Below are positions 3,990 through 24,201 of a DNA stretch of 31,569 nucleotides, in pieces. The stretch is from a virus: positions 1 to 31,569 of IMG/VR virus record IMGVR_UViG_3300007511_000084. One strand, written 5' to 3'. The translations under genes were made by a program, and so were the position numbers. A model generated the notes under the pieces. That model did no database searches. It was not told the origin of the DNA and saw only the letters and a program-made list of their open reading frames with translations. Within the stretch, counting starts at the first letter, position 1. Every line of letters starts with the position of its first letter.

Positions 3990-4041
3990 TATATAATGGA
4001 TCTATTTACTAATCATCATAAGAATTGTTAAGGAAAACCCA

Positions 4042-4416
4042 ATGGCATCAACCAATTATCTTGGCCAGCCCAATCTCAAAAATGTAGGTCAAAACATAGA
4101 GTGGACAAAAGAAACACTTCATGAATACATGCGTTGTAAAGAAGATCCAGAATATTTTATTTTAAACTATGTTCAGATAGTTCATGTTGATAAAGGTCTT
4201 GTGCCTTTTAATATGTATGATTATCAGAAAGATATGATACAAAAATTTACAGATAATAGATTTGTTATTTGTAAAATGCCTAGACAAACAGGAAAATGTT
4301 TTAATATAAATACTAATATTAGAGTAAGAAATAAAAAAACTGGTGAAATGCTTGAATTAACAGTAGGAGAATTATATGATAAAATTGAAGCAAAAAAGAC
4401 AAATAAAAACGTATGA
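4042..4416 (+). CDS. 17: Large terminase gp17, N-half fused to N-intein
   Basis: A 124-residue protein starts at ATG 4042 behind an AAGGA ribosome-binding site. Residues 1-85 are the start of the packaging ATPase, ending in the Walker A sequence 'CKMPRQTGK'. T4 gp17 has SRQLGKT at this place. The usual Ser/Thr after GK is missing. Cys86 instead begins an N-terminal split intein with the block A-like 'CFNINTNIRV', and 39 intein residues run to a TGA stop. After trans-splicing with the product of 5391-7109, residue 85 would join Ser114 of that ORF, restoring GKS and a terminase of about 544 residues (T4 gp17: 610). On its own this half has no complete ATP site. The splice junctions are seen; activity is inferred. 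Confidence 0.9.
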   Translation: MASTNYLGQPNLKNVGQNIEWTKETLHEYMRCKEDPEYFILNYVQIVHVDKGLVPFNMYDYQKDMIQKFTDNRFVICKMPRQTGKCFNINTNIRVRNKKTGEMLELTVGELYDKIEAKKTNKNV

Positions 4417-5729
4417 ATGCCTTGAATGTGGAGAAAAAATTAAAGGACCGGCGTTCGGAAAACATATCAAAAAACATGGCTATGAAAATACAAAAGAATA
4501 TAAAATTAAATTTAAATTGATAAAAACACAAGAAGATTTAAAAAATGAAGGTGCTGTATGTTGTTCTATTTGTAATTTTTACGGTCACGATTTAAATAGT
4601 CATATTATACGTCTCCATAAAATATCTATTCCAGACTATAAATCACAATATAATTCTCCTATTAAGAGTGATAATTATCTAAAAAAACAAAGTGATAGGA
4701 TGAAAGGTTCTAATAATCCTTGGTTTGAGCACGGTGGTAAGTTTTCACCATTTTCTGATAAATTCATTTATGCTGATAAAATAGTTAAAGAGAAATTATA
4801 TAAAAAAGTATCAAAATCAAATCGTGAGAATGGTAATAATGATACGACAGCGAAATATTGGATAAGCCGTGGATATACTGTAGAAGAAGCTAAAGAAAAA
4901 ATATCAAAACGCCAATCAACATTTTCTTTAGAAAAATGTATTCAAAAATATGGAGAAAAACAAGGTAAAGAACGCTGGTTAGAAAGACAGAAAAAGTGGC
5001 ATAAAAATTATAAAAAACAAAATTTTTCTAAAATTTCACAAGAATTGTTTTGGTTTATTGTGAGAAATTTAGATGATTTAACTGGGATATATTTTGCTGA
5101 ATTAGACGAAAACAAGAAAAAAGATATGAGCGGTAAAAATTGGGAATATACTTTGAAACTTGATAATTCTTTCATAAAACCTGATTTTTATATTGAGAAT
5201 AGTAACAAAATCATAGAATTTGACGGTACATATTGGCACAATAATAATAAGATAAGAAATACAAATAAAAATCGTGAAAATGTAAGAGATCAAAAGATAT
5301 TAAAAAATGGATTTAAAGTATTACATATAAAGGAAGAGTTATATAAAGAAAATAAAGAAAAAATTATAAGAGATTGTTTGGAGTTCATATATGGCTAAAT
5401 TCATAGAAGAATTATTTGATGATGAATGGGAAGTCGAAACGCCTTCTGGTTGGCAATCATTTTCTGGTATAGGTAAAACTATAGAATATGTTGAATGGGA
5501 AATAAAGACAGAAAAACATTCTTTAATATGTGCAGATGAACATCAAATAAAATCTGGAAATAGATTTGTTTATGCTTGTGATTTAAAAATTGGAGATTTT
5601 ATTGAAACTAAATCAGGTTTAGAAGAAATAATATCAGCCAGAAAGTTGAAGACTTCTTCCAATATGTTTGATTTATTGGATGTAGAAAATGGTAATGAAT
5701 ATTATACAAATGAAATTGTTTCGCACAAT
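4297..5729 (+). mobile_element. Split intein with nested homing endonuclease gene
   Basis: This is the whole insertion in gene 17. N-intein codons run 4297-4413 (39 residues, Cys1), the endonuclease ORF 4376-5398, and C-intein codons 5391-5729 (113 residues, ending His-Asn before Ser+1). Removing the two intein parts by trans-splicing would rebuild the Walker A loop of the packaging ATPase. The layout matches the 'fractured gene' arrangement known from marine phage metagenomes, in which a Vsr-like endonuclease separates two halves of a split intein. The split lies before block B, so the N-half is unusually short, as in the AceL-TerL class of atypical split inteins. Both ORF boundaries overlap, allowing coupled translation of all three products. 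Confidence 0.88.
4376..5398 (+). CDS. Vsr-like (EDxHD) homing endonuclease
   Basis: A 340-residue free-standing homing endonuclease, predicted to cut intein-less copies of gene 17. Two C2H2-like zinc fingers open the protein (C15, C18, H30, H34; then C63, C66, H76, H81). The middle carries motifs seen in this family, 'NPWFEHGGKFSPFS' and 'FSLEKCIQKYGE'. The C-terminus is a Vsr-like nuclease fold with D270 ('KPDF'), E281, D283 and H288 in 'IIEFDGTYWH', and D305 ('VRDQ'). An AGGAG site lies six bases before ATG 4376. It overlaps the N-intein ORF by 41 bases and the C-intein ORF by 8. It is visibly more AT-rich and Lys/Asn-rich than the terminase around it, consistent with transfer. Confidence 0.85.
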   Translation: MIKLKQKRQIKTYECLECGEKIKGPAFGKHIKKHGYENTKEYKIKFKLIKTQEDLKNEGAVCCSICNFYGHDLNSHIIRLHKISIPDYKSQYNSPIKSDNYLKKQSDRMKGSNNPWFEHGGKFSPFSDKFIYADKIVKEKLYKKVSKSNRENGNNDTTAKYWISRGYTVEEAKEKISKRQSTFSLEKCIQKYGEKQGKERWLERQKKWHKNYKKQNFSKISQELFWFIVRNLDDLTGIYFAELDENKKKDMSGKNWEYTLKLDNSFIKPDFYIENSNKIIEFDGTYWHNNNKIRNTNKNRENVRDQKILKNGFKVLHIKEELYKENKEKIIRDCLEFIYG

Positions 5730-7109
5730 TCAACCACAATTATCTCATTTTTATTACATTATATTCTTTTTAATGAGAGTGTGAATGTAGCTATTTTAGC
5801 GAACAAAGGTGCGGTAGCAAGAGAACTTTTGTCACGATTACAACTTGCATACGAACATCTGCCAAAATGGATACAACAAGGAGTGGTTACATGGAACAAA
5901 GGAAATATTGAAGTAGAGAATGGTAGTAAAGTGATTGCAGCCGCAACATCTTCTAGTGCGGTTCGAGGTAGTTCATTTAATATCATATTTCTTGATGAGT
6001 TTGCTCATGTGCCACAAAATATTGCTGATCAATTTTTTACTTCTGTATATCCTACAATTTCTTCTGGTGAATCTACAAAAGTCTTAATTGTTTCAACGCC
6101 ACTTGGATTGAATATGTTTTATAAGATGTGGATAGAAGCAGAAGAAGGTAGAAGTGATTATGTTCCAATCGAAGTGCATTGGTCAGAAATGCCAGGCAGA
6201 GATGGAAAATGGAAAGAAGAAACAATACGAAATACTTCTGAGGTTCAATTTACACAAGAGTTTGAATGTGAATTTGTAGGATCAACTTACACATTGATTG
6301 CCCCATCAAAACTTAGAACAATGGTGTTCAAGAATCCAATACATCAAAATAATAATTTAATTGTATATGAACATCCAATAAAGAATCATACATACGCTAT
6401 GGTATGTGATACCGCCCAAGGAAAGGGAGTAGATTATTCTGCTTTTTCAGTATTTGATGTTTCTGAAATACCATACAAACAAGTTGCAGTTTATAGAGAT
6501 AATCAAATTTCACCTATGTTATATCCAAATGTGATATATCAAGTTGGAATGAAATATAATATTGCTCATGTTTTAGTTGAAGTAAATGACATTGGATCTC
6601 AAGTTGCTGATACTCTACACTATGATTTGGAATATGAGAATATCATGATCATTACTATGAGAGGAAGAGCAGGACAACAAATAGGTGGTGGATTTGCAAA
6701 GAATATTCAATTAGGTTTGAGAACAAGTAAACAGATCAAGAGAATTGGATGTGCAGCATTAAAAGATTTAATAGAACAAGATCAATTAATTGTTCCAGAC
6801 TTTAATACAATTAAAGAACTTACAACCTTTGCCCTACAGAATAATACATATCAAGCAGAGGAAGGTTCTCATGATGATTTAGCAATGACTTTAGTTATAT
6901 TTGGATGGTTGGTACAACAAAGATACTTTAAAGAAATGACAAATATGGATATTAGAAAAAAGATGTGGGAAGAACAAATGGAAACTTTAGAACAAGATAT
7001 GTTACCTTTTGGAATTATAGATGATGGTAGAGATCCTGATACGTTTACGGATGATGAAGGCCAAACGTGGGTGGTTGATGATGAATTATCTAGAAGAGTG
7101 TATTACTAA
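5391..7109 (+). CDS. 17: C-intein fused to large terminase gp17, C-half
   Basis: A 572-residue protein. Residues 1-113 are the C-terminal split intein. It has an early 'TPSGWQSFSGIGKT' segment like that of atypical TerL inteins, a block B-like 'CADEHQI' and terminal 'YTNEIVSHN' with His112-Asn113. Ser114 is the +1 residue and would become the Ser of Walker A. The remaining 459 residues are the rest of gp17. They contain Walker B 'FLDEFAH', a coupling motif 'STPLG', and an RNase H-like nuclease with Asp in 'MVCDTAQGKGVDYSAF', Glu in 'VLVEVNDIGSQ' and Asp in 'SHDDLAM'. All key motor and nuclease residues are present, so the spliced enzyme should work. The 3' end overlaps the convergent HNH gene by 20 bases. 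Confidence 0.9.
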   Translation: MAKFIEELFDDEWEVETPSGWQSFSGIGKTIEYVEWEIKTEKHSLICADEHQIKSGNRFVYACDLKIGDFIETKSGLEEIISARKLKTSSNMFDLLDVENGNEYYTNEIVSHNSTTIISFLLHYILFNESVNVAILANKGAVARELLSRLQLAYEHLPKWIQQGVVTWNKGNIEVENGSKVIAAATSSSAVRGSSFNIIFLDEFAHVPQNIADQFFTSVYPTISSGESTKVLIVSTPLGLNMFYKMWIEAEEGRSDYVPIEVHWSEMPGRDGKWKEETIRNTSEVQFTQEFECEFVGSTYTLIAPSKLRTMVFKNPIHQNNNLIVYEHPIKNHTYAMVCDTAQGKGVDYSAFSVFDVSEIPYKQVAVYRDNQISPMLYPNVIYQVGMKYNIAHVLVEVNDIGSQVADTLHYDLEYENIMIITMRGRAGQQIGGGFAKNIQLGLRTSKQIKRIGCAALKDLIEQDQLIVPDFNTIKELTTFALQNNTYQAEEGSHDDLAMTLVIFGWLVQQRYFKEMTNMDIRKKMWEEQMETLEQDMLPFGIIDDGRDPDTFTDDEGQTWVVDDELSRRVYY

Positions 7110-7554
7110 AGGGGTCTATATCTTCAAAATTAACTTCTGAAGGTGGATTGTTTATTTCAGTTATTAAATCCTCAATTTTATTAGCAAGATCTGGTCTTTC
7201 TTTTTTTAGTCTATTTAAAAAGTTTATTGATCCAGCTATTAATTGTTCTGGATGTATGGTAATTCTTTTTCCTATTTTTCTTTTGTCAGATATTTCAAGG
7301 TGATTTGGATTTACACAAGAGGGGTTGAAACAAGTTTGAGTTACTACTTGATGGGCCGCCACATCACCATTATACATCATAAAAGAGTATCTACTGGCAG
7401 GAATAGTTTTACCTAATACTGAAAACATTCCATGACCTGTTTTATTTTTTGAAGCAAGCCAGATATGACATTTAGTATGTTTTTCGGTAGAATCAACTTT
7501 TTTAAGAAATCGTTCTATTATTTTTTTGTTGTCTAATATTTTGTCGTTTGACAT
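7090..7554 (-). CDS. HNH endonuclease, minus strand
   Basis: This is about 154 residues from ATG 7554, which has AGGA seven bases upstream. A start at 7662 would add a non-homologous hydrophobic stretch and is not preferred. The core 'CHIWLASKNKTGHGMF' ... 'CFNPSCVNPNHLEI' is the zinc-binding HNH pattern found in many phage endonucleases. The position usually held by the first catalytic His ('HxC') reads 'QTC' here. The nuclease may therefore be altered or inactive, unless the nearby His in 'VAAHQ' substitutes. The gene lies between 17 and 18, antisense to both, and its 3' end overlaps the end of gene 17. It looks like a free-standing mobile endonuclease; its target is unknown. Confidence 0.78.
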   Translation of the reverse strand: MSNDKILDNKKIIERFLKKVDSTEKHTKCHIWLASKNKTGHGMFSVLGKTIPASRYSFMMYNGDVAAHQVVTQTCFNPSCVNPNHLEISDKRKIGKRITIHPEQLIAGSINFLNRLKKERPDLANKIEDLITEINNPPSEVNFEDIDPFSNTLF

Positions 7555-7586
7555 AGTGAATCCTATAAATTTATGATATCTCTTAA

Positions 7587-7594
7587 TATTTATG
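7587..7594 (-). promoter_or_regulatory. Late promoter-like box CATAAATA, minus strand
   Basis: Read on the minus strand this is CATAAATA, one base from the T4 late consensus, and lies 32 bases before the HNH ATG at 7554. The same variant occurs before the capsid gene at 15325. It would give the HNH gene its own late transcript, antisense to gene 17. Such short boxes also arise by chance in AT-rich DNA. Confidence 0.45.
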
Positions 7595-7629
7595 ATTTTA
7601 GAAAACTTAAAAATAATAAATACTTTCAA

Positions 7630-7656
7630 TATGGCGTATAATAGCCATAATTTTTT
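7630..7656 (+). terminator. Probable intrinsic terminator before gene 18
   Basis: A six-base-pair stem TATGGC/GCCATA encloses an eight-base loop and is followed by ATTTTTT. It lies downstream of gene 17 and 38 bases before the gene 18 start, where it could end the neck-terminase transcript. The stem is short, so efficiency is uncertain. Confidence 0.45.
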
Positions 7657-7694
7657 GAACAAAATCTTTCAATAATTCTTTTAGGAGAGATAAG

Positions 7695-22533: not shown

Positions 22534-24201
22534 ATGATTATATTTTCCAAAGTAAAATGGAAAAATTTCCTAAGTACGGGAAATCAGTTCACAGAAATTA
22601 TACTTAACAAAACTCCAACTACTTTAATTGTTGGAGAAAACGGCTCTGGTAAATCTACAATTCTTGATGCCCTCACTTTTAGTTTGTTTGGGAAACCATT
22701 TAGGCGAGTTAACAAAGGACAATTAGTTAATTCTGTAAATAATGGTGGAACTTTAACAGAAGTTGAATTTGATGTAGGCAATAAACACTATATGGTCAAA
22801 AGAGGTATTAAGAAGAATATTTTTGAAATATATGTAGATGGTAAAAGATTAAATCAAGCGGCAAAGATCGCAGATCAACAAGAATATCTAGAGAATACGA
22901 TTCTCAAATTAAATTATAAATCGTTCACTCAAATTGTTATTCTTGGATCTGCATCTTTTACTCCTTTTATGCAGTTAAAGACAACAGATAGGAGAACTAT
23001 TATTGAAGATCTTTTAGACATTCAAATTTTTTCAGTAATGAATGGTTTATTAAGAAGCAGAATGTCCGAAAATAAAGAGAGTGTATTGAATAATGGTGTT
23101 CATTTAGAATTAACAGAGGGTAAACTGGCTACCACTCAAGAATTGATTAATGATATAAGGAAAACAAAATCTAATCAAATTGATAAAAATTTACAAGATA
23201 TAGAAAAGAATGAAATTGAGTCAAAGAAATTAAGTGAATCAGTTGAAGAATTATTAGAAATTATATCGTCTGATTCTTCTATAGATGAATTTAATAAATT
23301 AGAAAAATATAGAGATGGTATTGAACGTAATATTTTAAAAGCAGAAAAAGAAATAGAATTTTATGAACAGAACGATACTTGTGGAACTTGTAATCAAGAG
23401 TTAGATGAAGAACATAAATCCAATATGATTTCAGAACATCATGGTAAGATGCACGCTTGGAGTGATGGGTTAATGAATCTTTCAGGGAAGATTAGTGATG
23501 TAAAAATTAAGATGGATGAAATTACTAAGCTACAAACTGCCGTTTCTCAAAAACAAATTCAGATTCAAGGAATTAATCAATATATTAAAAAATTAAAGAC
23601 TCAAATTTTAGAGATTGAAGACCGTGAAGATGATATTGATGAAAAAAATAAAACATTAAAAGAACTTAAAGAAGAATTAAAATTATGTCAAACCAAAAAA
23701 GAACAATTATCATTTAAAAAACAACTTTATGAAACGGCATCTGTTCTTTTAAAAGATTCTGGAATTAAGACACGTATTATTAAACAATATCTTCCTATAA
23801 TGAATAGATTGATTAATAAGTATCTTGCAGCAATGGATTTTTTTGTTTCTTTTACTTTGGACGAATCATTTAATGAATCAATCAAATCTCGACATAGAGA
23901 TGAGTTTACATATGATTCATTTAGTGAGGGTGAAAAGATGAGAATTGATTTAGCACTTCTTTTCACATGGAGAACGATAGCCAAGATGAAAAATAGTGTG
24001 AATACTAATCTATTAATTTTGGATGAGGTATTTGATAGTTCATTAGATGCAAATGGTACTGATGAATTCCTTGCAATAATTAATAATCTTCAAGGTAAAC
24101 AAAATGTATTTGTAATTAGTCATAAAGGAGATGCATTGACGGATAAATTCAGAAATAAGATTACATTTGAAAAATATAAAAATTTCTCAAGGATAATATG
24201 A
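22534..24201 (+). CDS. 46: Recombination nuclease subunit gp46 (Rad50-like)
   Basis: A 555-residue homologue of T4 gp46 (560), the SMC-like ATPase that works with gp47. Walker A 'GENGSGKST' lies at residues 34-42 and a zinc hook 'CGTC' at 283-286 in the middle of a long coiled coil. The C-terminal ATPase lobe has the signature 'SEGEKMRIDLAL', Walker B 'LLILDEVFD' and a switch His in 'VISHKGD'. All expected parts are present. The start follows weak ribosome-binding sequence, and the stop overlaps the deformylase ATG by four bases. Confidence 0.95.
   Translation: MIIFSKVKWKNFLSTGNQFTEIILNKTPTTLIVGENGSGKSTILDALTFSLFGKPFRRVNKGQLVNSVNNGGTLTEVEFDVGNKHYMVKRGIKKNIFEIYVDGKRLNQAAKIADQQEYLENTILKLNYKSFTQIVILGSASFTPFMQLKTTDRRTIIEDLLDIQIFSVMNGLLRSRMSENKESVLNNGVHLELTEGKLATTQELINDIRKTKSNQIDKNLQDIEKNEIESKKLSESVEELLEIISSDSSIDEFNKLEKYRDGIERNILKAEKEIEFYEQNDTCGTCNQELDEEHKSNMISEHHGKMHAWSDGLMNLSGKISDVKIKMDEITKLQTAVSQKQIQIQGINQYIKKLKTQILEIEDREDDIDEKNKTLKELKEELKLCQTKKEQLSFKKQLYETASVLLKDSGIKTRIIKQYLPIMNRLINKYLAAMDFFVSFTLDESFNESIKSRHRDEFTYDSFSEGEKMRIDLALLFTWRTIAKMKNSVNTNLLILDEVFDSSLDANGTDEFLAIINNLQGKQNVFVISHKGDALTDKFRNKITFEKYKNFSRII

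What the first reader, a model, noticed from the sequence alone, without database searches (positions are those of the whole stretch)
4297..5729. Large terminase fractured by a split intein at the Walker A loop
The intein breaks gp17 exactly between GK and S of the P-loop, so no packaging ATPase can form without trans-splicing. Cys1, the terminal His-Asn and Ser+1 are all present. The arrangement with a Vsr-like endonuclease matches known 'fractured genes', and this appears to be an intact member in terminase.
Basis: partly seen in the sequence, partly recalled or inferred. Interest (0 to 1): 0.75.

Follow-up and report, generated by a model that had tools for sequence, protein, structure and literature searches.

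The report
Phage packaging motor gene split by intein
A marine virus of bacteria carries its DNA-packaging motor gene in two pieces, interrupted inside the ATP-binding loop by a mobile element that almost certainly stitches the protein halves back together; it is a new, intact example of a known kind of "fractured gene", and its relatives show the same element in other ATPase genes.

Summary
Confirmed. In a T4-like phage contig, terL (gp17) is interrupted by exactly 1,433 bp (4297-5729) between the GK and S codons of Walker A; 74 of the 80 closest relatives have the uninterrupted gene at that junction. The insert encodes a 39-aa N-intein (Cys1), a separately initiated zinc-finger + EDxHD/Vsr-type homing endonuclease, and a 113-aa C-intein (block B ADEH, terminal His-Asn, Ser+1) with a HINT fold closest to VidaL and Cat. 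The genes lie in three frames with their own Shine-Dalgarno sites. Splicing would give a 544-aa TerL aligning with T4 gp17; trans-splicing itself was not tested. This is a fractured gene with an atypically split intein, but a different allele from AceL/GOS/Cat-TerL (other site, other +1 residue). It is not isolated: a search with the endonuclease alone found 80 loci, 79 with the same C-intein, at P-loops of TerL, gp41-like helicase or gp46/SbcC-like nuclease. In five lineages intein and terminase form one open frame with the endonuclease nested in another. Window locus: new member of a known kind; the P-loop cassette family is the more novel reading.

The parts
4042..4296 (+). TerL (gp17) N-extein, 85 codons, ends MPRQTGK
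   Evidence: phrog_5989 terminase E 3e-25; T4 gp17 alignment
4030..4034 (+). Shine-Dalgarno-like AAGGA before TerL-N ATG 4042
   Evidence: sequence
4297..5729 (+). whole insertion, 1433 nt, absent from 74 of the 80 nearest terL loci
4297..4416 (+). N-intein (39 aa, Cys1, block A and helix-1 motif TVGELYDKI), stop 4414-4416
   Evidence: alignment with relatives
4365..4369 (+). AGGAG ribosome-binding site for the endonuclease, inside the IntN motif GEL/GEF; same TAGGAGA(A/T)TTT-ATG context in L087, L108, L110 and the nested forms
4376..5398 (+). homing endonuclease, 340 aa: two C2H2/Ros-like zinc fingers (C15-C18-H30-H34; C63-C66-H76-H81), C-terminal EDxHD/Vsr-like nuclease (PDF...IIEFDGTYWH...RD)
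   Evidence: Vsr TIGR00632 in 6/6 members; DUF559 and ROS_MUCR 6/6; PDB 3r3p 'mobile intron protein' E 0.0023, Ros 2jsp E 0.0012
5380..5383 (+). GGAG ribosome-binding site for IntC-TerL-C, at the 3' end of the endonuclease ORF
5391..5729 (+). C-intein, 113 aa: block B CADEH, block F MFDLLDVENGNEYYTN, block G IVSHN
5730..7109 (+). TerL C-extein from Ser+1 (459 aa): rest of the ATPase, Walker B, nuclease domain
   Evidence: PF03237 and PF17289

Best explanation
A mobile fractured-gene cassette sits in the Walker A codons of terL. Three proteins are made from overlapping genes: TerL(1-85)-IntN, the homing endonuclease, and IntC-TerL(86-544). IntN and IntC dock to form one HINT domain. Cys1 attacks the Lys85-Cys1 bond, the N-extein passes to Ser+1, Asn113 of IntC cyclises, and TerL is joined with its P-loop restored, so the packaging motor forms only after trans-splicing. 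The endonuclease spreads the cassette by cutting uninterrupted P-loop alleles in co-infecting phages. Shown: exact insertion and empty alleles, intein motifs and fold, separate frames and ribosome sites, nuclease family, purifying selection. Inferred: that splicing occurs, its chemistry, and that the nuclease cuts the empty site.
For: Exact 1433-nt insertion against 74 empty alleles. The IntC profile hits CatC, VidaL and gp41-1 inteins (E 3e-10 to 2e-9); AF2 pLDDT 89.8; VidaL fold match TM 0.82. Catalytic residues are kept across relatives. L108 vs L110: pN/pS 0.21-0.35 in IntN, endonuclease, IntC and both exteins. The relative frames of the three genes differ between relatives (+1/+1, +1/-1, -1/-1), so no conserved frameshift joins them. 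In the 735-kb phage LR756503 the Walker A-split TerL halves lie about 12 kb apart. In Campylobacter phage CP8, split at Walker B, they lie about 22 kb apart on opposite strands. There only trans assembly is possible. Contiguous inteins occupy the same site in Ackermannviridae. The endonuclease is physically tied to the intein in 79 of 80 loci.
Against: No splicing, cleavage or expression data. IntC has Glu where most relatives have Gly (TNEIV vs TNGIV), and block B is ADEH rather than TxxH; the latter is family-wide, so not decay. The window is a 31.6-kb virus fragment; only near-identical contigs (L081, L082) carry the same allele.
Confidence: 0.92

Rival explanations
1. The intein is dead and the phage is defective: the insertion is a degraded remnant, terminase is not made.
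For: No experiment shows splicing; TNEIV departs from TNGIV.
Against: All three ORFs are open in two independent assemblies, changes are mostly synonymous, and no catalytic residue is lost. Relatives keep all parts under purifying selection. Ribosome sites are intact.
Confidence: 0.03
2. The halves are joined in cis by two programmed ribosomal frameshifts through the endonuclease, giving one long precursor.
For: The ORFs overlap by 41 and 8 nt; some relatives really are contiguous.
Against: Relative frames differ between relatives. Each downstream gene has its own ribosome site and ATG. In LR756503 and CP8 the halves are far apart.
Confidence: 0.02
3. The two fragments assemble into a working terminase without splicing, as reported for the gene-in-pieces NrdA of phage Aeh1 (from memory).
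For: Such split phage enzymes exist; not excluded by sequence.
Against: The break falls inside the P-loop between Lys and Ser/Thr, and intein residues needed only for splicing are conserved across dozens of loci.
Confidence: 0.02
4. A self-splicing RNA intron, not an intein.
For: Endonucleases of this family also occur in introns.
Against: No Rfam intron in the window; IntC is in frame with TerL-C and has a HINT fold.
Confidence: 0.01
5. Same cassette, but splicing is regulated and delays packaging-motor assembly until late infection.
For: The site lies in the catalytic loop, so timing of splicing would gate the motor; a TATAAATA late-promoter-like box lies at 4305.
Against: TATAAATA occurs no more often than chance (7 vs 6.3 expected); no condition-dependence data. 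This adds to, rather than replaces, the best explanation.
Confidence: 0.1

Closest known systems
Fractured genes with split inteins and EDxHD/Vsr-type homing endonucleases (Dassa et al. 2009, paper not readable here; cited through PMC13014065, PMC12350094)
   Same: Gene in two ORFs, N- and C-intein at the break, freestanding endonuclease of the same nuclease family between them
   Different: Early (atypical) split giving a 39-aa IntN; site is Walker A of TerL; Cys1/Ser+1
AceL-TerL, GOS-TerL and consensus Cat-TerL atypically split inteins
   Same: Same host protein, same early split after helix 1 (25/104, 37/115 aa in PMC11766414; here 39/113); IntC matches Cat at E 3e-10
   Different: Different insertion site (the Cat C-extein begins CE; L087 shows that site at QEFE^CEFLG) and +1 Cys; separate branch, 100/99
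VidaL atypically split intein (PDB 6VGV)
   Same: Best structural match of IntC (TM 0.82)
   Different: Much shorter IntN (16 aa, split after strand 2; PMC13014065); 27% identity
Contiguous TerL mini-inteins of Ackermannviridae (Magnus, Det7, RC-2014)
   Same: Same Walker A site, 33-39% identical C-terminal part, same ADxH block B; they nest within this family
   Different: One ORF, no endonuclease
TerL1-a P-loop inteins of mycobacteriophages (PMC5050341)
   Different: Contiguous inteins of another terminase family
Split gp17 of Aeromonas phage PX29 (annotated 17A/17B with N- and C-intein), phiR1-RT, SEA1, JK32
   Same: Split TerL inteins in cultured T4-like phages
   Different: Other sites: CEFLG-like site (PX29) and Walker B IDE^CAF (others)

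Membership tests
Split intein | Two separately encoded halves that together hold splicing blocks A, B, F and G | tested here: met
   IntN 4297-4416, IntC 5391-5729
Split intein | Nucleophile at 1, block B His, terminal His-Asn, nucleophile at +1 | tested here: met
   Cys1, ADEH, SHN, Ser+1
Split intein | HINT fold | tested here: met
   AF2 of IntC, pLDDT 89.8; VidaL and Cat top PDB matches. The IntN-IntC complex was not modelled
Split intein | Protein trans-splicing | not testable with these tools
   needs co-expression
Fractured gene (split intein + EDxHD endonuclease) | Host gene broken at the intein with a freestanding endonuclease ORF between the halves | tested here: met
Fractured gene (split intein + EDxHD endonuclease) | Endonuclease of the EDxHD/Vsr-like family | tested here: met
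   EFDGxYWH...RD motif; Vsr model 6/6 members, best 7.7e-4; 3r3p E 0.0023; weak but consistent profile scores
Fractured gene (split intein + EDxHD endonuclease) | Intein-free alleles exist | tested here: met
   74 of 80 loci
Fractured gene (split intein + EDxHD endonuclease) | Endonuclease cuts the empty site | not testable with these tools
   needs cleavage assay
AceL/GOS/Cat-TerL allele | Insertion at the CEFLG site with Cys+1 | tested here: not met
   Walker A site, Ser+1
AceL/GOS/Cat-TerL allele | Clusters with Cat/AceL inteins | tested here: not met
   Cat groups with the L087 second-site intein 100/99; window outside
TerL P-loop (Walker A) inteins | Insertion between the P-loop Lys and Ser/Thr | tested here: met

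The most novel reading that the evidence does not exclude
The window holds one member of a single mobile lineage - an atypically split intein plus a zinc-finger EDxHD nuclease - specialised for the GK^S/T codons of P-loop ATPases. It moves between different phage genes (terL, gp41-like helicase, gp46/SbcC-like nuclease). It also switches between a split form and a contiguous form in which the nuclease is encoded in another frame inside the intein. That lineage preserves the steps between split, contiguous and mini-intein states.
Probability: 0.7. Interest if true: 0.72.

Novelty: new member of a known kind. Interest (0 to 1): 0.5.

Why it matters
It adds an intact split intein with a short 39-aa N-half and a Cys1/Ser+1 pair, at the most conserved codons of an essential viral motor, which may be useful as a protein-ligation tool. 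Its family lets two open questions be tested. The first is how split inteins arise, since split, contiguous-with-nested-endonuclease and endonuclease-free forms sit in one tree. The second is how a homing element moves between different genes that share only a P-loop.

Tried and rejected
RNA intron: no Rfam hit in the window. Programmed frameshift: relative frames differ between relatives. Late promoter inside IntN (TATAAATA at 4305): no more than chance. Membership in the AceL/GOS allele: rejected by site, +1 residue and tree. Apparent extension of TerL-C matches into the intein in L001, L010, L060, S-H38 and others: chance, the gap in the loci checked is 0 and S-H38 has one ordinary terL gene. 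The HNH gene 7090-7662 as part of the element: rejected, it is present in 64 relatives without the intein. AF2 model of the endonuclease: mean pLDDT 61, too poor to search. The original AceL, GOS, Cat and Dassa papers are not held, so prior description of P-loop TerL split inteins could not be excluded. The AceL/GOS insertion site is therefore inferred from the Cat C-extein and tree position, not read.

Full report
Observation. The window is a 31,569-base virus record from a T4-like myovirus: gp15, TerS, TerL, sheath, portal and major head protein are all recognisable. The TerL N-extein runs 4042-4296 and stops after ...MPRQTGK. The C-extein starts STTIISF at 5730. Between them lie exactly 1433 nt. 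Of the 80 nearest TerL loci in IMG/VR, 74 have both halves with nothing between them. One more (L077) has the intact site but a frame error upstream, and five are cut by contig ends. The joined 544-aa protein aligns with T4 gp17 from residue 4 to 492 (E 1e-108), the junction falling between Lys and Ser/Thr of Walker A.

Anatomy. The insert has three parts in three frames: IntN (39 aa, Cys1), a 340-aa endonuclease starting at 4376 behind AGGAG, and IntC (113 aa) starting at 5391 behind GGAG. The endonuclease overlaps IntN by 41 nt and IntC by 8 nt. IntC has block B CADEH, block F MFDLLDV...YYTN and the terminal SHN before Ser+1. A nine-sequence profile of IntC hits CatC, VidaL and gp41-1 inteins. 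An AlphaFold2 model (pLDDT 89.8) matches VidaL (TM 0.82), Cat and other HINT domains. The Ala in block B is shared by contiguous and split relatives, so it is a family trait, not decay. The endonuclease has two Ros/MucR-like zinc fingers and a C-terminal EDxHD/Vsr-like domain.

Function. Between the window and an independent contig (L081) the exteins differ by 11 synonymous and no nonsynonymous codons; IntC differs by 2 synonymous codons. L108 against L110 gives pN/pS 0.21-0.35 in every part (dS is high, so these are rough). Frames between the three genes vary among relatives. In LR756503 (735 kb) the N half (623934-624251) and the C half (611056-611400) lie about 12 kb apart. In Campylobacter phage CP8, split at Walker B, the halves lie about 22 kb apart on opposite strands. 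These cases can only work in trans. Trans-splicing in the window is therefore the best reading, though not shown.

Family. Scanning with an IntC query or alignment found further split Walker A terL genes (L087/L088, L105/L106, L108-L111) and a gp41-like helicase split at its own P-loop (L084-L086). Scanning with the endonuclease alone found 80 loci. All but one, which is cut by its contig end, carry the same-family IntC downstream. Host genes were TerL 66 (counting L088), gp46/SbcC-like 9, gp41-like 3, and one AAA-like protein (L205). Where the junction could be read, N-exteins end GK and C-exteins begin S or T; the single AK and G entries come from L165, where the motif was misplaced, and L204, cut by its contig end. 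Host calls were checked with PHROGs on five representatives; the others rest on sequence similarity at the junction. Many loci are near-copies. A reduced tree (54 cassettes plus 5 others) separates the P-loop inteins from Cat and the CEFLG-site intein (100/99). It needs two changes each for gp41 and gp46. Holding gp41 and gp46 together as one clade is disfavoured (AU p 0.012, a grouping not fixed before the tree was seen).

Two architectures. In most members the TerL-N frame is full of stops across the endonuclease (37-59 in the controls; a wider range). In five lineages (L163 group, L162, L172, L165, L181) TerL-N, intein and TerL-C form one open frame of about 730-1130 aa with zero stops in the insert, while the endonuclease (278-313 aa) is nested in another frame. 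In the L163 group the endonuclease frame has pS 0.07-0.20 and pN 0.008-0.021. So both frames appear to be kept. The contiguous, endonuclease-free mini-inteins of Ackermannviridae fall among most of these (99/94). An out-of-frame HNH gene in a stop-free phage insertion has been described (ShiLan domain, PMC11855218), but there without detectable splicing domains.

Comparison with the known. Fractured genes, EDxHD endonucleases, atypically split TerL inteins and P-loop terminase inteins are all known (PMC13014065, PMC12350094, PMC11766414, PMC5050341). This locus combines them. It fails the AceL/GOS/Cat allele test on site, +1 residue and tree position. I therefore file the window element as a new member of a known kind. 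The P-loop cassette family with its nested form is the more novel, separately scored reading.

Limits. No wet-lab test was possible, the key 2009-2018 intein papers could not be read, and the window is a fragment.

Noticed in passing
L163 3616-6582 with 3992-4828; L162, L165, L172, L181: Terminase and intein form one open frame while the homing endonuclease is nested in another frame; zero stops versus 37-59 in split controls.
   Followed up: yes
L177, L180, L187, L191, L193-L195, L197, L199; L179, L182, L208, L084: The same split-intein cassette sits at the P-loop of gp46/SbcC-like and gp41-like genes.
   Followed up: yes
window 22534-24201: The window's own SbcC-like gene has an empty P-loop GENGSGK|STILDAL, the site occupied by this cassette in L191 and others.
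   Followed up: partly
L087/L088; L105: TerL broken into three pieces by two different split inteins (Walker A plus CEFLG site with Ser1; Walker A plus Walker B).
   Followed up: partly
L094/L127 (LR756503); L101/L128 (CP8): TerL halves with intein halves lie about 12 kb and 22 kb apart in the genome.
   Followed up: partly
L090 2986-4008 (Caulobacter phage Cr30): A relative of this endonuclease stands alone just upstream of an uninterrupted terL.
   Followed up: no
window 7090-7662, minus strand: HNH endonuclease gene overlapping the end of terL on the other strand; conserved next to terL in 64 relatives without the intein, so perhaps a packaging-linked gene rather than a recent invader.
   Followed up: partly
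L209 460-3083 (contig titled Helicobacter cetorum MAG): Walker A split TerL intein with no endonuclease between the halves.
   Followed up: no
L091 4771-5211 (LR756500): C-intein ends Ser-Ser-Gln instead of Ser-His-Asn before Thr+1.
   Followed up: no
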